Source: Clostridium sp. Marseille-Q2269 (GTDB lineage Bacteria > Bacillota > Clostridia > Clostridiales > Clostridiaceae). Taken from it: DNA of 64,000 nucleotides. The DNA lies in assembly GCF_943736985.1 (NCBI RefSeq), contig NZ_CALSFS010000003.1, forward strand, positions 124,001 through 188,000. The letters are read 5' to 3'. A program made the translations under genes and the position numbers. The notes under the pieces were generated by a model that made no database searches, had not been told where the DNA came from, and worked only from the letters and a program-made list of their open reading frames with translations. Within the stretch, counting starts at the first letter, position 1. Every line of letters starts with the position of its first letter. Below are positions 353-47,242 of the stretch, piece by piece.

Positions 353-1595
353 ATAATAATTATACAAACACAAAAAAGGAGGAAATAAAAAATGGCAAAA
401 GCAAAATTTGAAAGAAGCAAACCTCATGTAAACATAGGAACAATAGGTCACGTAGACCACGGTAAGACAACATTAACAGCAGCTATAACAACAGTATTAG
501 CACAAAAAGGAGGAGCTTCAGCAACAAAGTATGACGAAATAGATAAAGCTCCAGAAGAAAAAGAAAGAGGAATCACAATCAATACATCACACGTAGAGTA
601 TGAAACAGCAAACAGACACTACGCACACGTAGATTGTCCAGGACATGCGGATTATGTAAAGAACATGATCACAGGAGCAGCACAAATGGATGGAGCGATC
701 TTAGTTGTATCAGCAGCAGATGGTCCAATGCCACAAACAAGAGAACACATACTACTAGCATCAAGAGTTGGAGTACAATATATAGTAGTATTCTTAAATA
801 AAGCAGACCAAGTAGATGATCCAGAATTAATTGAATTAGTTGAAATGGAAGTAAGAGAATTATTAAATGAATATGGATTCCCAGGAGATGATACTCCAAT
901 CGTAGTAGGATCAGCATTAGAAGTATTAGAAAACCAAGACAATGCAGAAAAGACAAAATGCATAGATGAATTAATGGAAGCAATAGACAGCTATATTCCA
1001 ACACCAGAAAGAGCAACAGATCAACCATTCTTAATGCCAGTAGAAGACGTATTGACAATCACAGGAAGAGGAACAGTTGCAACAGGAAGAGTTGAAACAG
1101 GAGTTCTACATACTGGAGATGAAGTAGAATTAGTAGGAATGAAAGAAGAAATATCAAAAACAGTATGTACAGGAATAGAAATGTTCAGAAAAATACTTGA
1201 TGAAGCAATGGCAGGAGACAACATTGGAGCATTATTAAGAGGTATTCAAAGAGACGAAATCCAAAGAGGTCAAGTATTAGCAAAACCAGGTTCAGTAACA
1301 CCACACAAAAAATTCGTAGGTCAAGTATACGTATTAAAGAAAGAAGAAGGCGGAAGACATACACCATTCTTCAACGGATATAGACCACAATTTTATTTCA
1401 GAACAACAGACGTTACAGGATCAATCAACTTACCAGAAGGCGTAGAAATGGTAATGCCAGGAGATCATATAGATATGGCAGTAGAATTAATCACACCAGT
1501 AGCAATGCACGAAAACTTAAGATTCGCTATAAGAGAAGGTGGAAGAACAGTAGGTTCAGGAGTTGTTACAACTATATCTGAATAATTCTAAATTA
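353..1595 (+). repeat. tuf direct repeat, copy 1
   Basis: A 1243-base block that matches 16270-17512 (offset 15917). It includes 39 bases of leader with the Shine-Dalgarno, the whole gene and 10 bases after the stop. I see one base difference, G at 1054 versus T at 16971. Its left edge contains the TAA that terminates fusA in the other copy, so this copy probably arose from the fusA-tuf junction. Confidence 0.9.
392..1585 (+). CDS. tuf: Elongation factor Tu, copy 1
   Basis: EF-Tu is the cytoplasmic GTPase that delivers aminoacyl-tRNA to the ribosomal A site. The 397-residue product has the G-domain motifs GHVDHGKT (19-26), DCPGH (81-85) and NKAD (136-139), followed by beta-barrel domains 2 and 3. 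The start follows AAAGGAGG at a good distance. It is expressed from the tRNA promoter and has its own terminator. It differs from the second copy only at residue 221, which is Leu here (TTG) in [11 protein letters not shown]. Phe is the usual residue in this domain 2 motif and is present in the other copy. The gene looks intact and functional. Confidence 0.98.
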
Positions 1596-16273: not shown

Positions 16274-17512
16274 TAATTATACAAACACAAAAAAGGAGGA
16301 AATAAAAAATGGCAAAAGCAAAATTTGAAAGAAGCAAACCTCATGTAAACATAGGAACAATAGGTCACGTAGACCACGGTAAGACAACATTAACAGCAGC
16401 TATAACAACAGTATTAGCACAAAAAGGAGGAGCTTCAGCAACAAAGTATGACGAAATAGATAAAGCTCCAGAAGAAAAAGAAAGAGGAATCACAATCAAT
16501 ACATCACACGTAGAGTATGAAACAGCAAACAGACACTACGCACACGTAGATTGTCCAGGACATGCGGATTATGTAAAGAACATGATCACAGGAGCAGCAC
16601 AAATGGATGGAGCGATCTTAGTTGTATCAGCAGCAGATGGTCCAATGCCACAAACAAGAGAACACATACTACTAGCATCAAGAGTTGGAGTACAATATAT
16701 AGTAGTATTCTTAAATAAAGCAGACCAAGTAGATGATCCAGAATTAATTGAATTAGTTGAAATGGAAGTAAGAGAATTATTAAATGAATATGGATTCCCA
16801 GGAGATGATACTCCAATCGTAGTAGGATCAGCATTAGAAGTATTAGAAAACCAAGACAATGCAGAAAAGACAAAATGCATAGATGAATTAATGGAAGCAA
16901 TAGACAGCTATATTCCAACACCAGAAAGAGCAACAGATCAACCATTCTTAATGCCAGTAGAAGACGTATTTACAATCACAGGAAGAGGAACAGTTGCAAC
17001 AGGAAGAGTTGAAACAGGAGTTCTACATACTGGAGATGAAGTAGAATTAGTAGGAATGAAAGAAGAAATATCAAAAACAGTATGTACAGGAATAGAAATG
17101 TTCAGAAAAATACTTGATGAAGCAATGGCAGGAGACAACATTGGAGCATTATTAAGAGGTATTCAAAGAGACGAAATCCAAAGAGGTCAAGTATTAGCAA
17201 AACCAGGTTCAGTAACACCACACAAAAAATTCGTAGGTCAAGTATACGTATTAAAGAAAGAAGAAGGCGGAAGACATACACCATTCTTCAACGGATATAG
17301 ACCACAATTTTATTTCAGAACAACAGACGTTACAGGATCAATCAACTTACCAGAAGGCGTAGAAATGGTAATGCCAGGAGATCATATAGATATGGCAGTA
17401 GAATTAATCACACCAGTAGCAATGCACGAAAACTTAAGATTCGCTATAAGAGAAGGTGGAAGAACAGTAGGTTCAGGAGTTGTTACAACTATATCTGAAT
17501 AATTCTAAATTA
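16270..17512 (+). repeat. tuf direct repeat, copy 2
   Basis: Partner of the block at 353-1595. Identity begins at the last base of the fusA sense codons and ends 10 bases beyond the tuf stop. The flanks on both sides are unrelated. Confidence 0.9.
16309..17502 (+). CDS. tuf: Elongation factor Tu, copy 2
   Basis: The str-operon EF-Tu, 397 residues, co-transcribed with rpsL-rpsG-fusA. Motifs are as in copy 1 (GHVDHGKT 19-26, DCPGH 81-85, NKAD 136-139). Residue 221 is Phe (TTT), giving [11 protein letters not shown], the common form of this motif, whereas copy 1 has Leu. The near-complete DNA identity of the two genes, including silent positions, points to recent duplication or ongoing gene conversion. 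Confidence 0.99.
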
Positions 17513-43296: not shown

Positions 43297-45306
43297 TTAT
43301 TTATAAATTTCCGGAGTTATATTATATTTTTTACATTTTAACGAAACAGTTCTGTGAGTTATCCCCAAGGCTTTACCTGCTTTATTAAAACTTTTATATT
43401 TTTTCATTGCTAAAGTAATTATTTCTTTTTCATACTCTTCTAGTGTTTTTAGTTTATCTTGGCTTATATTAAGATTATAGCTATCATCAAGAGCGTTGTT
43501 AGATATATAAAATGGTAAATCCTTAAATGTTATTATGGATTTATCACACATATTCATAGCTCTTTCAACAATATTTTCTAGTTCACGTATATTTCCAGGC
43601 CAGTCATATTCCTGTAGTTTTAAAAGAGCTTCTTTATTTATACCTAATATATTTTTGTTAAGTTTAGGATTAATCTTGTTTATAAAATGTTCTACTAAAA
43701 GATTTATATCTTGCTTTCTATGGCGAAGAGGTGGTAACGAGATATTTAAAACGTTTAGTCTGTAATATAGATCTTCTCTAAATGTGTTATCCTTAATCAT
43801 ATTTTCTAAATTTCTATTAGTGGCAGCAATTATTCTAACATCCACCTTTTGAGTTTTAATACCGCCTACACTTTCAAATTCTTTTTCTTGAAGAACTCTT
43901 AATAGTTTTACTTGCATAGAAATGGGCAAATCTCCTATTTCATCTAAAAAGATCGTTCCACCATCTGCAATGTTAAATTTCCCAGGTTTCTTTTTTATGG
44001 CTCCTGTAAAAGCTCCTTTTTCAAAACCAAAAAGCTCACTTTCTAAAAGATTCTCTGGTATGGCTGCGCAGTTTACTCTAACAAAAGACTTATTCTTTCT
44101 AGGACTATTATCATGTATAGCATTAGCTATTATCTCTTTACCGGTACCACTTTCTCCCCTAATAAGAACAGTAGATGTTGACTTAGAAGCTTTTTCTGCT
44201 ATAGATAAGCAATCTTTTAAAGAGCTATTCCATCCTATTATAGATTTAAAAGAAGAACTTAAAGGAAGATGTCTAGTCAATTCGTTTTTATAATACATAA
44301 GCTTTTCTTCAGACTCTGTTAGTCTTAATGTAAGATCCTTTAATTCATCTACAGTTTTAGATATAGAAATAACCCCTTTAAATTCATTATCAATAAAAAT
44401 AGGTTCTATAGTAGAGATAATATTTATATTATCTTTATTGTATATTATATTTTCCTTTGACTGCTTAGTTGTGAATACTTCCATTAATAAATTATTTGGG
44501 GAGGCTTCCTTTATGTCTTTACCGATAATATCTTTATAATCTATAGAAAAATGTTTTTGGTATGAAGGATTAACATATACTATTTTCGCATCTTCGTCTA
44601 TGAAACAAATTAAATCATGGGAAGATTCTAATATTTTTTTGAATTTTTCATTTAGTTCTTTTATACCGATTAGTTCAGAAACGTCTTGAAATACACTTAT
44701 GCCACCTAGAAGTTTATTATTAAAATATATAGGAGATCTGTTAGTTATTAATATTCTATTACCCATATACTGGGTTTTACCTTTATGATAGCATTGATTT
44801 TTAACTACATCAGGTAATTCAGAGCTTGGTATTATATCTTTAATATTTTTGCCTAGTATATCTTCTAAGGAAGAACCAATAATTTTTAAAGAATAATTAT
44901 TGGCCATAGTAATTTTATTATTCTTATCTATTACTAATATCCCCACAGGTATATTAGTAAATATCTGATCATAGGCTATAGTATTCTCCTCTATGATATA
45001 ATCTAATTTGGAAGCAGGATTTTCCTTAGATATATCATAATTAATAAAATTGCATAATTCTAAAACTGCGTTTTGAGCTTTAGAAGAATTGCTATTACAA
45101 GATATTTCTATTATTTCATGTTGTTTTATTTTTAAAGAAATTAAAGCTAACATACTTATAGCTAAGGGTTCTTTGGAGTCCATTCTTTTTATATAGAGAT
45201 CTAGACCATATTTATTTTTTATTTCTGTAGCCTTATGAACTATCATAGCAGCGATTCTTGTATGTATACCATTAGTTATAGGAACTACTATATTATTTTT
45301 ATACAT
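43297..45306 (-). CDS. Sigma-54-dependent transcriptional activator with N-terminal HPr-like domain
   Basis: A 669-residue bacterial enhancer-binding protein. Residues 1-90 resemble the PTS phosphocarrier HPr: NGIHTRIA keeps the phospho-acceptor His (His15) and Arg17. The segment LAISMLALISL aligns with the regulatory-Ser region (Ser51). Two PAS domains follow, about 110-220 and 228-335. The AAA+ domain (about 355-590) has Walker A GESGTGKE near 384 and an intact GAFTGA loop at 431-436, needed to contact sigma-54. A Fis-type helix-turn-helix ends the protein (about 625-665). Its Shine-Dalgarno AAGGAG is adjacent to a palindrome (45320-45334). It is divergent from ptsI, which has a sigma-54 promoter, so ptsI is the likely target. 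Confidence 0.93.
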   Translation of the reverse strand: MYKNNIVVPITNGIHTRIAAMIVHKATEIKNKYGLDLYIKRMDSKEPLAISMLALISLKIKQHEIIEISCNSNSSKAQNAVLELCNFINYDISKENPASKLDYIIEENTIAYDQIFTNIPVGILVIDKNNKITMANNYSLKIIGSSLEDILGKNIKDIIPSSELPDVVKNQCYHKGKTQYMGNRILITNRSPIYFNNKLLGGISVFQDVSELIGIKELNEKFKKILESSHDLICFIDEDAKIVYVNPSYQKHFSIDYKDIIGKDIKEASPNNLLMEVFTTKQSKENIIYNKDNINIISTIEPIFIDNEFKGVISISKTVDELKDLTLRLTESEEKLMYYKNELTRHLPLSSSFKSIIGWNSSLKDCLSIAEKASKSTSTVLIRGESGTGKEIIANAIHDNSPRKNKSFVRVNCAAIPENLLESELFGFEKGAFTGAIKKKPGKFNIADGGTIFLDEIGDLPISMQVKLLRVLQEKEFESVGGIKTQKVDVRIIAATNRNLENMIKDNTFREDLYYRLNVLNISLPPLRHRKQDINLLVEHFINKINPKLNKNILGINKEALLKLQEYDWPGNIRELENIVERAMNMCDKSIITFKDLPFYISNNALDDSYNLNISQDKLKTLEEYEKEIITLAMKKYKSFNKAGKALGITHRTVSLKCKKYNITPEIYK

Positions 45307-45319
45307 AAAAACATCTCCT

Positions 45320-45334
45320 TGATAAAAAATATCA
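45320..45334. promoter_or_regulatory. Palindromic operator/UAS copy 1 (TGATA-N5-TATCA)
   Basis: TGATAAAAAATATCA, 13 bases upstream of the regulator ATG (- strand) and next to its Shine-Dalgarno. It is one of three near-identical 15-base palindromes in the regulator-ptsI gap. Binding here could also repress the regulator gene. Confidence 0.75.
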
Positions 45335-45349
45335 AAAAATACTATAATA

Positions 45350-45364
45350 TGATAAAAAATATCA
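45350..45364. promoter_or_regulatory. Palindromic operator/UAS copy 2
   Basis: TGATAAAAAATATCA, identical to copy 1 and exactly 30 bases further on, about three helical turns, so the two sites are on the same face of DNA. Confidence 0.75.
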
Positions 45365-45422
45365 ATTCTTTACTACTATAATTATACACCATAGAGTATA
45401 ATAAATATATACCACTTTAAGT

Positions 45423-45437
45423 TGATAAAAAGTATCA
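45423..45437. promoter_or_regulatory. Palindromic operator/UAS copy 3
   Basis: TGATAAAAAGTATCA, one base different from copies 1 and 2. It ends 100 bases before the -24 element of the sigma-54 promoter, a normal enhancer distance. Confidence 0.75.
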
Positions 45438-45537
45438 GCTTTTTTATTAATATCTAAAAAATATAAAAAAGAGCATACTATAATTATTAGTATATTAAAA
45501 ATAATTATGAAGAATATGCAAAAAAAATATATTTTTA

Positions 45538-45553
45538 TGGCATGATTTTTGCT
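45538..45553 (+). promoter_or_regulatory. Sigma-54 (-24/-12) promoter of ptsI
   Basis: TGGCATGATTTTTGCT matches the consensus TGGCAC-R-N4-TTGCW at all positions except one (T for C), with the invariant GG and GC in correct spacing. It lies about 73 bases before the ptsI start. No good sigma-A promoter is apparent in the 316-base gap. Confidence 0.85.
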
Positions 45554-45625
45554 AATTAATTATTATAAGGTTATATTTTAAATAAGAAAATTATATGTAT
45601 CGGTTATTATTAAGGAGGAAAAATG

Positions 45626-47242
45626 ATGAAAAAAGGGATAGCTGCTTCAAAGGGATATGCTATAGGAAAAGTTTTTATTAAGGAAGATGTAAATATAGAG
45701 GTTGTAGAAAAAAATATAGATAATGTAGAGGAAGAAAAAGCAAGATTTAAAACTTCCTTAAGCACTACTAGAGAACAGCTTAAAAAAATAAAAGAAAAAG
45801 CTCAAAAAGAAGTAGGAGAAGAAAAAGCAGCGGTATTTGATAGCCATATTATGCTATTAGATGATCCAGAATTTGCTGGAGCTGTAGAAATGAATATAGA
45901 ATCTAATAAAGTTAATTCAGAAAAAGCACTTGATGAAGTAATTGACATGTATAGTGCTATATTTGCTTCAATGGAAGATGAATATATGAAAGAAAGAGGA
46001 GCAGATATAAAAGACGTAGGTAAAAGAATAATGTTAAATCTTATGGGTAAATCAACAGGTAGTATGGATGATTTAGATAAAGACACCATAATAGTAGCCC
46101 AAGATTTAACTCCATCTGATACTGCTCAATTAGATAAAGAAAAAGTAATAGCTTTTTTAACTAATATAGGTGGAAGAACTTCTCACAGTGCTATAATGGC
46201 TAGAACCTTAGAAATACCAGCTATAGTTGGTATGAAAGATATAACTGAATATGTTAAAAATGGCGATGTGGTAATAGTTGATGGATCAGAAGGAACAGTA
46301 ATAATAAACCCAGATGAAGAAACTATAGAAAAATATGAAGAAAGAAAGAAAGCTTTCTTAAAAGAAAAGGAAGAATTAAAGAAACTTATAAATGTTGCAA
46401 CAATTACTAAAGCAGGAAAAACAGTAGAAGTTTGTGGAAATATAGGAAAACCTCAAGATGTTCATCAAGTGTTAGAAAATGGTGGAGAAGGGGTAGGCCT
46501 TTTCAGAACAGAATTTTTATATATGGATAGAGACAATATGCCATCAGAAGATGAACAATTTGAGTCTTATAAATATGCAGTAGAAAAAATGGATGGCAGA
46601 CCTGTAGTTATAAGAACTTTAGATATAGGTGGAGATAAAAAACTACCATATTTACAAATGCCTGAAGAAATGAATCCTTTCTTAGGATATAGAGCTATAA
46701 GATTATGTCTTGATAGAACAGAATTATTTAAAGTTCAATTAAGAGCATTACTTAGAGCATCTGCTTTTGGAAATTTAAAAATAATGTTTCCAATGATATC
46801 ATCTTTATCAGAATTTAAGGCCGCTAAAGAATTATTAAAAGAATGTATGGATGAACTTAAAGTAGAAGGAAAAGAATTTAATGAAAATTTAGAAACAGGT
46901 ATAATGGTAGAAATACCAGCAGCTGCTGTATGTGCCGATGAACTTGCTAAATATGTAGATTTCTTTAGTATAGGGACTAATGATTTAATACAATATACAT
47001 TAGCAGCAGATAGAATGAATGAAAAAATATCATATCTTTATAATCCAATGCATCCTGCAGTATTAAGATTAATAAAAATGACTATAGATGCAGCACACAA
47101 AGAAGGAAAATGGTGTGGAATGTGCGGAGAAATGGCGGGAGATGAAACTGCTATAGCAACTCTTGTAGAATATGGATTAGATGAGTATTCTATGAGTGCA
47201 TCTTCTATATTAACAGCAAAAAAATTAATAATGAATTCTTAA
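45626..47242 (+). CDS. ptsI: Phosphoenolpyruvate-protein phosphotransferase (PTS Enzyme I)
   Basis: Enzyme I transfers phosphate from PEP to HPr to start sugar uptake by the PTS. The 538-residue protein has the swivelling domain with the phospho-His in GGRTSHSAIMARTLEIPAIVG (His187). The PEP-binding barrel has FLYMDRDNMPSEDEQ, MVEIPAA and SIGTNDLIQYTLAADRMNE, plus Cys in GMCGEMAG. ATG 45626 has seven-base spacing from AAGGAGG, and ATG 45623 immediately before it is an alternative. ptsH is not adjacent. Upstream sigma-54 elements and the divergent HPr-domain activator indicate unusual control. Confidence 0.97.
   Translation: MKKGIAASKGYAIGKVFIKEDVNIEVVEKNIDNVEEEKARFKTSLSTTREQLKKIKEKAQKEVGEEKAAVFDSHIMLLDDPEFAGAVEMNIESNKVNSEKALDEVIDMYSAIFASMEDEYMKERGADIKDVGKRIMLNLMGKSTGSMDDLDKDTIIVAQDLTPSDTAQLDKEKVIAFLTNIGGRTSHSAIMARTLEIPAIVGMKDITEYVKNGDVVIVDGSEGTVIINPDEETIEKYEERKKAFLKEKEELKKLINVATITKAGKTVEVCGNIGKPQDVHQVLENGGEGVGLFRTEFLYMDRDNMPSEDEQFESYKYAVEKMDGRPVVIRTLDIGGDKKLPYLQMPEEMNPFLGYRAIRLCLDRTELFKVQLRALLRASAFGNLKIMFPMISSLSEFKAAKELLKECMDELKVEGKEFNENLETGIMVEIPAAAVCADELAKYVDFFSIGTNDLIQYTLAADRMNEKISYLYNPMHPAVLRLIKMTIDAAHKEGKWCGMCGEMAGDETAIATLVEYGLDEYSMSASSILTAKKLIMNS

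What the first reader, a model, noticed from the sequence alone, without database searches (positions are those of the whole stretch)
43297..45626. HPr-domain sigma-54 activator divergent from a sigma-54-dependent ptsI: a possible PTS feedback circuit
Seen: the - strand regulator has an HPr-like N-terminus keeping His15 and Arg17 (GIHTR), two PAS domains, an AAA+ domain with an intact GAFTGA loop, and a Fis helix-turn-helix. Between it and ptsI lie three TGATA-N5-TATCA palindromes and TGGCATGATTTTTGCT, a near-consensus -24/-12 promoter. Known: enhancer-binding proteins with PTS-related domains are usually of the LevR type, with PRD, EIIA and EIIB domains and control of sugar permeases. Inference: Enzyme I could phosphorylate the HPr-like domain, so the activator reads EI flux and sets ptsI expression. 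Putting the general PTS enzyme under sigma-54 control is unusual.
Basis: partly seen in the sequence, partly recalled or inferred. Interest (0 to 1): 0.75.

Follow-up and report, generated by a model that had tools for sequence, protein, structure and literature searches.

The report
HPr-domain activator dedicated to ptsI
A regulator that carries a copy of a sugar-uptake phosphocarrier domain sits back to back with the gene for the first enzyme of that uptake system and very probably switches it on; the design was already known, and the comparison here shows how tightly it is tied to that one gene.

Summary

Comparison makes the case. In 70 loci with this regulator, ptsI is on the stretch in 68; it is divergent in 68 of 68, and 66 of 68 keep the -24/-12. 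The two without it have also lost rpoN and GAFTGA, yet keep palindromes and His15. The paired palindrome occurs once, at this locus, in 13 of 17 genomes and nowhere in 4. Of the relatives fetched, 38 of 38 with neighbours in view sit by dhaKLM or ptsHI; one more sits by adk. His15 is kept in 110 of 110 rows.

So: a dedicated sigma-54 activator of ptsI, probably reading Enzyme I phosphorylation; that step and its sign are untested. The kind is known: HPr-domain activators are cited from 1999, and a 2019 table lists ptsI under the activator DhaQ.

The parts
43297..45306 (-). HPr-PAS-PAS-AAA+-HTH sigma-54 activator (669 aa)
   Evidence: ORF, Pfam, 70 loci compared
45037..45306 (-). HPr-like domain, residues 1-90; His15 codon 45262-45264, Arg17 45256-45258, Ser46-equivalent Ser51 45154-45156
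   Evidence: PF00381, profile comparison with clostridial PtsH, model and fold match, conservation
44674..44973 (-). first PAS domain, about residues 112-211
   Evidence: Pfam PAS_8/PAS_9
44317..44646 (-). second PAS domain, from residue 221; the end near 330 is my estimate
   Evidence: Pfam PAS
43486..44241 (-). AAA+ sigma-54 interaction domain and lid, residues 356-607; GAFTGA 43999-44016
   Evidence: Pfam, alignment
43318..43443 (-). C-terminal helix-turn-helix, residues 622-663
   Evidence: Pfam HTH_50
45320..45334 (.). UAS1 TGATAAAAAATATCA, 13 bases before the regulator's ATG and touching its ribosome-binding site
   Evidence: kept in relatives
45350..45364 (.). UAS2 TGATAAAAAATATCA, 30 bases from UAS1
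   Evidence: pair spacing 28-33 in 67 of 71 loci
45423..45437 (.). UAS3 TGATAAAAAGTATCA
   Evidence: kept in relatives
45537..45553 (+). -24/-12 sigma-54 promoter element of ptsI, ATGGCATGATTTTTGCT
   Evidence: kept in 66 of 68 loci
45623..47242 (+). ptsI, Enzyme I of the phosphotransferase system (539 aa)
   Evidence: TIGR01417, 721.8 bits

Best explanation
The regulator is a dedicated sigma-54 activator of ptsI. It binds the TGATA-N5-TATCA sites, loops to RNA polymerase-sigma-54 at the -24/-12 element and drives transcription of ptsI, usually the cell's only Enzyme I gene (supported by conservation, not by experiment). Its N-terminal HPr-like domain is a sensor for Enzyme I: phospho-Enzyme I passes its phosphoryl group to His15 of the domain (inferred). 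I propose that the unphosphorylated domain leaves the ATPase active and the phosphorylated one shuts it off, so that when Enzyme I is scarce or drained by heavy sugar uptake more is made, a homeostatic loop (inferred). Occupied UAS1/UAS2 would also cover the regulator's own start and so hold down its own synthesis (inferred). Step probabilities: sigma-54 control of ptsI by this protein 0.93; domain is a substrate or direct partner of Enzyme I 0.75; unphosphorylated form active 0.5; self-repression 0.55.
For: Divergent from ptsI in 68 of 68 loci where ptsI is on the stretch (70 loci in all), 67 of them within 253-732 bp. At least two palindromes, one mismatch allowed, in 70 of 70; -24/-12 in 66 of 68. 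Control: of 52 ptsI loci without the regulator (48 with 300 bp or more upstream), palindrome and perfect -24/-12 occur only in L012, whose contig ends 203 bp upstream of ptsI; L029 has one poor -24/-12. Paired palindrome once per genome, at this locus, in 13 of 17 genomes. Co-loss: G114 and G115 lack rpoN, GAFTGA and -24/-12 together. A published laboratory mutation in what is almost certainly C. acetobutylicum (Table 2 of PMC4700727, NC_003030 position 3241117, G to T) falls on the C of the -12 GC of this promoter. His15 kept in 71 of 71 ptsI-type and 39 of 39 other HPr-activator rows. Of the relatives fetched, 38 of 38 with neighbours in view lie by dhaKLM or ptsHI. HPr fold. Sole Enzyme I gene in 15 of 16 genomes. 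For the sign, weakly: ptsI falls in a C. acetobutylicum ccpA mutant with slower glucose use and no CRE site at ptsI (PMC3507653, passage); its authors take the fall as a cause of the slow uptake, I suggest it could be an effect.
Against: No transcript, binding or phosphorylation data were found. Position 18, Pro in 21 of 22 PtsH-type rows, is Pro in none of 110 HPr-activator rows, and about four extra residues follow helix A, so transfer from Enzyme I may be altered. The strain with the -12 mutation was a consortium's working strain, so the mutation may be partial or another promoter may exist (inference). Sigma-A-like sequences score at least 10 of 12 in 45 of 68 of these AT-rich gaps, the window included, so a second promoter cannot be excluded. 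The PAS domains must sense something. One ptsI-type paralogue (L137) lies by adk. Three UAS plus -24/-12 matches lie elsewhere, in 3 of 60 genomes. 129 of 206 genomes of the family show neither type at E 1e-10, so the loop is dispensable.
Confidence: 0.65

Rival explanations
1. The PAS domains are the true sensor (ligand, redox or energy state); the HPr-like domain is a structural relic, and its link with Enzyme I is only ancestry.
For: Two PAS domains in the window and in most rows; PAS is the commonest input of Clostridiales activators (PMC6615313). Pro18 is absent in 110 of 110.
Against: His15 is kept in 110 of 110 and Arg17 in 109 of 110, also where sigma-54 is gone. About 110 residues of the PAS region are missing in L010, L020 and L043, while the HPr-like domain is there. 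38 of 38 relatives with neighbours in view sit by Enzyme I or Enzyme I-dependent genes.
Confidence: 0.2
2. The domain is read by HPr kinase at the Ser46-equivalent (Ser51), so the activator reports glycolytic state rather than Enzyme I.
For: Ser in 70 of 71 ptsI-type rows; HPr kinase in 16 of 16 genomes; Ser51 aligns with Ser46 and precedes helix B.
Against: In the dha-type and outside relatives the position is often Ala or Thr while His15 stays. Ser at this helix start is also kept in HPr of bacteria without the kinase (recalled).
Confidence: 0.15
3. The unphosphorylated domain simply binds Enzyme I, so free Enzyme I titrates the activator without phosphoryl transfer.
For: The hydrophobic helix B surface is kept (M52 67 of 71, L53 69 of 71).
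Against: Binding alone would not need an invariant His15-Arg17 pair; Crh keeps the fold with Gln for His (recalled).
Confidence: 0.15
4. ptsI is transcribed mainly from a sigma-A promoter, with sigma-54 adding a minor, conditional part.
For: Sigma-A-like sequences in 45 of 68 gaps; in the window TTGATA-18-TATAAT overlaps UAS1 and ends just before UAS2, pointing at ptsI.
Against: No such element is kept in place: a perfect -10 at the right spacing from UAS1 in 4 of 67 loci (background about 2%), whereas -24/-12 is kept in 66 of 68.
Confidence: 0.25

Closest known systems
HPr-domain hybrid regulator (Reizer et al. 1999, Microbiology 145:987; title seen in the reference list of PMC3162934 only)
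   Same: By title, a response regulator with a PEP-dependent phosphorylation domain; Francke 2011 cites it for activators with an HPr signal-domain in Clostridia.
   Different: Not held, so whether it is this gene, and whether ptsI is mentioned, is unknown to me.
DhaQ group of Nie et al. 2019 (PMC6615313)
   Same: Sigma-54 activator group with targets dhaKLM and ptsI in Clostridium, Acetobacterium and Geosporobacter (Table 1); PTS-HPr domains noted among N-terminal domains.
   Different: Filed under dihydroxyacetone metabolism, with no mechanism in the parts read. Here the ptsI type is a clade apart from the dha type (quick tree). Its supplementary tables were not open to me.
LevR-type activators
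   Same: PTS-linked sigma-54 activators.
   Different: Use PRD and EII domains (PMC3162934 passage); none is in the Pfam table of this protein.
E. coli TyrR (recalled)
   Same: NtrC-like protein that works without sigma-54, as the G114/G115 form must.
   Different: No HPr domain; regulates amino acid genes.

Membership tests
Bacterial enhancer-binding protein (sigma-54 activator) | AAA+ domain with Walker motifs and GAFTGA loop | tested here: met
Bacterial enhancer-binding protein (sigma-54 activator) | C-terminal HTH and upstream palindromic sites | tested here: met
Bacterial enhancer-binding protein (sigma-54 activator) | -24/-12 promoter at the target | tested here: met
Bacterial enhancer-binding protein (sigma-54 activator) | rpoN in the same genome | not testable with these tools
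   no genome held for the window and no rpoN in the window; rpoN in 67 of 69 genomes of the searched family that carry the ptsI-type regulator
HPr domain | HPr fold | tested here: met
HPr domain | His15 and Arg17 of the active centre | tested here: met
   71 of 71
HPr domain | Pro18 of the active centre | tested here: not met
   Ile in the window, 0 of 71 Pro; so I call it HPr-like
HPr domain | phosphorylation by Enzyme I | not testable with these tools
   needs protein chemistry
DhaQ group (Nie 2019) | HPr-type activator beside ptsI or dhaKLM | tested here: met
   beside ptsI; no dhaKLM in the window. That DhaQ itself carries the HPr domain is my inference
DhaQ group (Nie 2019) | membership in their orthologue list | not tested
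LevR-type activator | PRD, EIIA, EIIB domains | tested here: not met
   absent from the Pfam table at E 1

The most novel reading that the evidence does not exclude
Enzyme I controls its own gene through a phosphorylatable HPr copy built into the activator, a phosphoryl-flux homeostat that outlives its own output: in the Clostridium bornimense line sigma-54, the GAFTGA loop and the -24/-12 are all lost, yet the HPr-domain protein, its sites and its place beside ptsI stayed, so the same sensor now governs ptsI without sigma-54.
Probability: 0.4. Interest if true: 0.72.

Novelty: new member of a known kind. Interest (0 to 1): 0.52.

Why it matters
To my knowledge the control of the general PTS enzymes themselves is little studied in clostridia. 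If true, this is a concrete, widely conserved loop from Enzyme I back to ptsI that can be tested in a harmless industrial species; it would give a meaning to a promoter mutation found in a C. acetobutylicum consortium strain and to the CRE-less drop of ptsI in a ccpA mutant; and it offers a natural experiment in how an enhancer-binding protein survives the loss of sigma-54.

Tried and rejected
The window's own genome is not held. A wider regulon: one palindrome followed by -24/-12 gave 18 places in 17 of 60 genomes, 15 at ptsI and 3 elsewhere (by eye, before ABC transporter genes in two and an amidohydrolase-like gene in one); I take these three as chance or other activators' sites. That pattern covers only part of the observed spacings (it misses ptsI itself in most of the 60), so its silence elsewhere means little. 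A conserved sigma-A promoter between UAS1 and UAS2 was sought and not found. The same palindrome (exact) is absent from the ten loci; in the 39 loci (two of them also) it lies between activator and next gene in L181 and L182 (dhaK) and L287 (ptsH). In one search some dha-type rows were misaligned; redid them with the best domain, and for those rows I use, except for the general remark on Ser46, which rests on both. Four of the 39 rows were missed by the regular expression and read by eye (L178, L290, L292, L293). Of 20 dha-type hits one (G148) was not fetched; of 23 outside hits three (G548, G460, G590) were not. Papers: no data on ptsI against sigma-54 turned up; PMC6510779 and PMC9130780 hold no ptsI mention; passages of PMC2405797, PMC3395874 and PMC6837493 did not bear on it, except that C. 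beijerinckii ptsI was said to be highly expressed throughout fermentation. A model of the full-length protein was wanted but never accepted.
Full report

Conservation. A ptsI scan returned 80 loci, 28 with the same divergent regulator. A profile of the HPr-like domain then searched 206 genomes of the family at E 1e-10: 77 have a match, 69 with the ptsI type (over 100 bits) and 8 with only a second type (46-79 bits). With one more genome not among the 206 (G016) I examined 70 ptsI-type loci. ptsI is on the stretch in 68 (in the other two the regulator lies at a contig edge) and divergent in 68 of 68; in one, G106, rpoN and ptsH lie between. At least two palindromes (one mismatch allowed) occur in 70 of 70 and the -24/-12 in 66 of 68. 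Two neighbouring palindromes lie 28-33 bases apart in 67 of 71 loci, 31 being commonest (34), about three helical turns. The first palindrome lies 9-26 bases from the regulator's start in 23 of the 29 loci, the window included.

Controls. Among the 52 of 80 ptsI loci without the regulator, only L012 has palindrome and perfect promoter, and its contig ends before a regulator could be seen; L029 has one poor -24/-12. In whole genomes the paired palindrome was found in 13 of 17, once each, always at this locus; the reversed pattern gave none. In the window alone the -24/-12 is not significant.

Natural loss of sigma-54. rpoN was found in 173 of 206 genomes (171 over the cut-off). Of the 69 ptsI-type genomes, two lack it: G114 and G115. 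They are also the two of 68 loci without a -24/-12, and their GAFTGA region is replaced while both Walker motifs, HTH, His15 and the palindromes remain. In each, this is the only strong match to the sigma-54 activator domain (216 and 219 bits; next best 51-52). Both share TGCTATAAT 53 bases before ptsI, though such extended -10 elements occur somewhere in 11 of 68 gaps. So the sigma-54 output is gone while sensor and target stayed.

A mutation already in print. G165 is almost certainly C. acetobutylicum ATCC 824. Its ptsI has TTGGCATGATAATTGCT at 3241132-3241116, minus strand. PMC4700727 (passages read) reports in the COSMIC laboratory strain a G to T change at NC_003030 3241117, 'promoter region of CA_C3087'; the base there is G on the plus strand and is the C of the -12 GC. 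The authors placed it within a predicted -35 region. Their text gives G to A at 3241095 and the table 3241092 for their corrected numbering; in the numbering used here the bases at those two places are C and A, so only 3241117 fits. PMC3507653 (passage) reports ptsI (CAC3087) down in a ccpA mutant without a CRE site.

The wider family. Of 20 second-type hits, 19 were fetched, and 19 of 19 lie directly upstream of dhaK or glpF-dhaK. Of 398 genomes drawn from the phylum, 23 not among the 206 carry a match in an ORF of activator size (552 aa or more); 20 were fetched: 6 lie by ptsH-ptsI, 13 by dha genes (four with ptsH-ptsI in the same run; in five of the 13 a gap of 1.7-1.9 kb lies between), and 1 is cut by the contig end. 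One further ptsI-type paralogue, in C. caldaquaticum, lies by adk with its own -24/-12 (L137). DhaKLM takes phosphate from Enzyme I and HPr (recalled), so nearly every member seen sits at genes that make or consume phospho-Enzyme I. The ptsI type separates from the rest at full support in a quick tree, the adk paralogue inside it; long branches meet near that split, so its depth is unsure.

What is read. His15 is kept in 71 of 71 ptsI-type rows including the window and 39 of 39 others; Arg17 in 71 of 71 and 38 of 39; position 18 is never Pro. The Ser46 equivalent is Ser in 70 of 71 ptsI-type rows but often Ala or Thr in the others. That favours the Enzyme I site over the HPr kinase site as the shared input, though the kinase is present in 16 of 16 genomes. 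ptsI is the only Enzyme I gene in 15 of 16. No dhaKLM, ptsH or rpoN lies in the window.

Mechanism. Supported by comparison: a dedicated ptsI regulator that works through sigma-54 wherever sigma-54 exists. Inferred: phosphoryl transfer to His15. Inferred with less weight: the unphosphorylated form is active. In the dha relatives the substrate drains phosphate, so induction by the unphosphorylated state is the simple reading, and it suits ptsI as supply following demand.

Novelty. HPr-domain activators in Clostridia are mentioned in PMC3162934 (passages), citing Reizer 1999 (title only). PMC6615313 (Results parts 1-2 of 3 read, other passages seen) lists DhaQ with targets dhaKLM, ptsI. No paper testing the loop was found in the searches named under Tried and rejected, in a library that lacks most subscription journals. 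I therefore call it a new member of a known kind, with a strong comparative case and a possibly new sigma-54-free offshoot.

Noticed in passing
window 392-1585 and 16309-17502: Two nearly identical 397-aa copies of what I recognise as the elongation factor Tu gene (tuf), 15.9 kb apart; ordinary.
   Followed up: partly
L137:2535-5407: A second ptsI-type HPr-activator in C. caldaquaticum lies upstream of what looks like an adenylate kinase gene, with ATGGCATGATAATTGCT just before it: an unexpected target for this family.
   Followed up: no
L219 (G106) and L287 (G384): rpoN lies between the HPr-activator and ptsH-ptsI in G106, and directly after ptsH-ptsI in G384: a physical link of sigma-54 and PTS genes.
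   Followed up: no
L218 (G179): The regulator is split over three reading frames while palindromes and a slightly off-consensus -24/-12 remain: decay or assembly error; described only.
   Followed up: no
L175 (G165), gap before ptsI: The published COSMIC-strain change in C. acetobutylicum falls on the -12 GC of the sigma-54 promoter of ptsI.
   Followed up: partly
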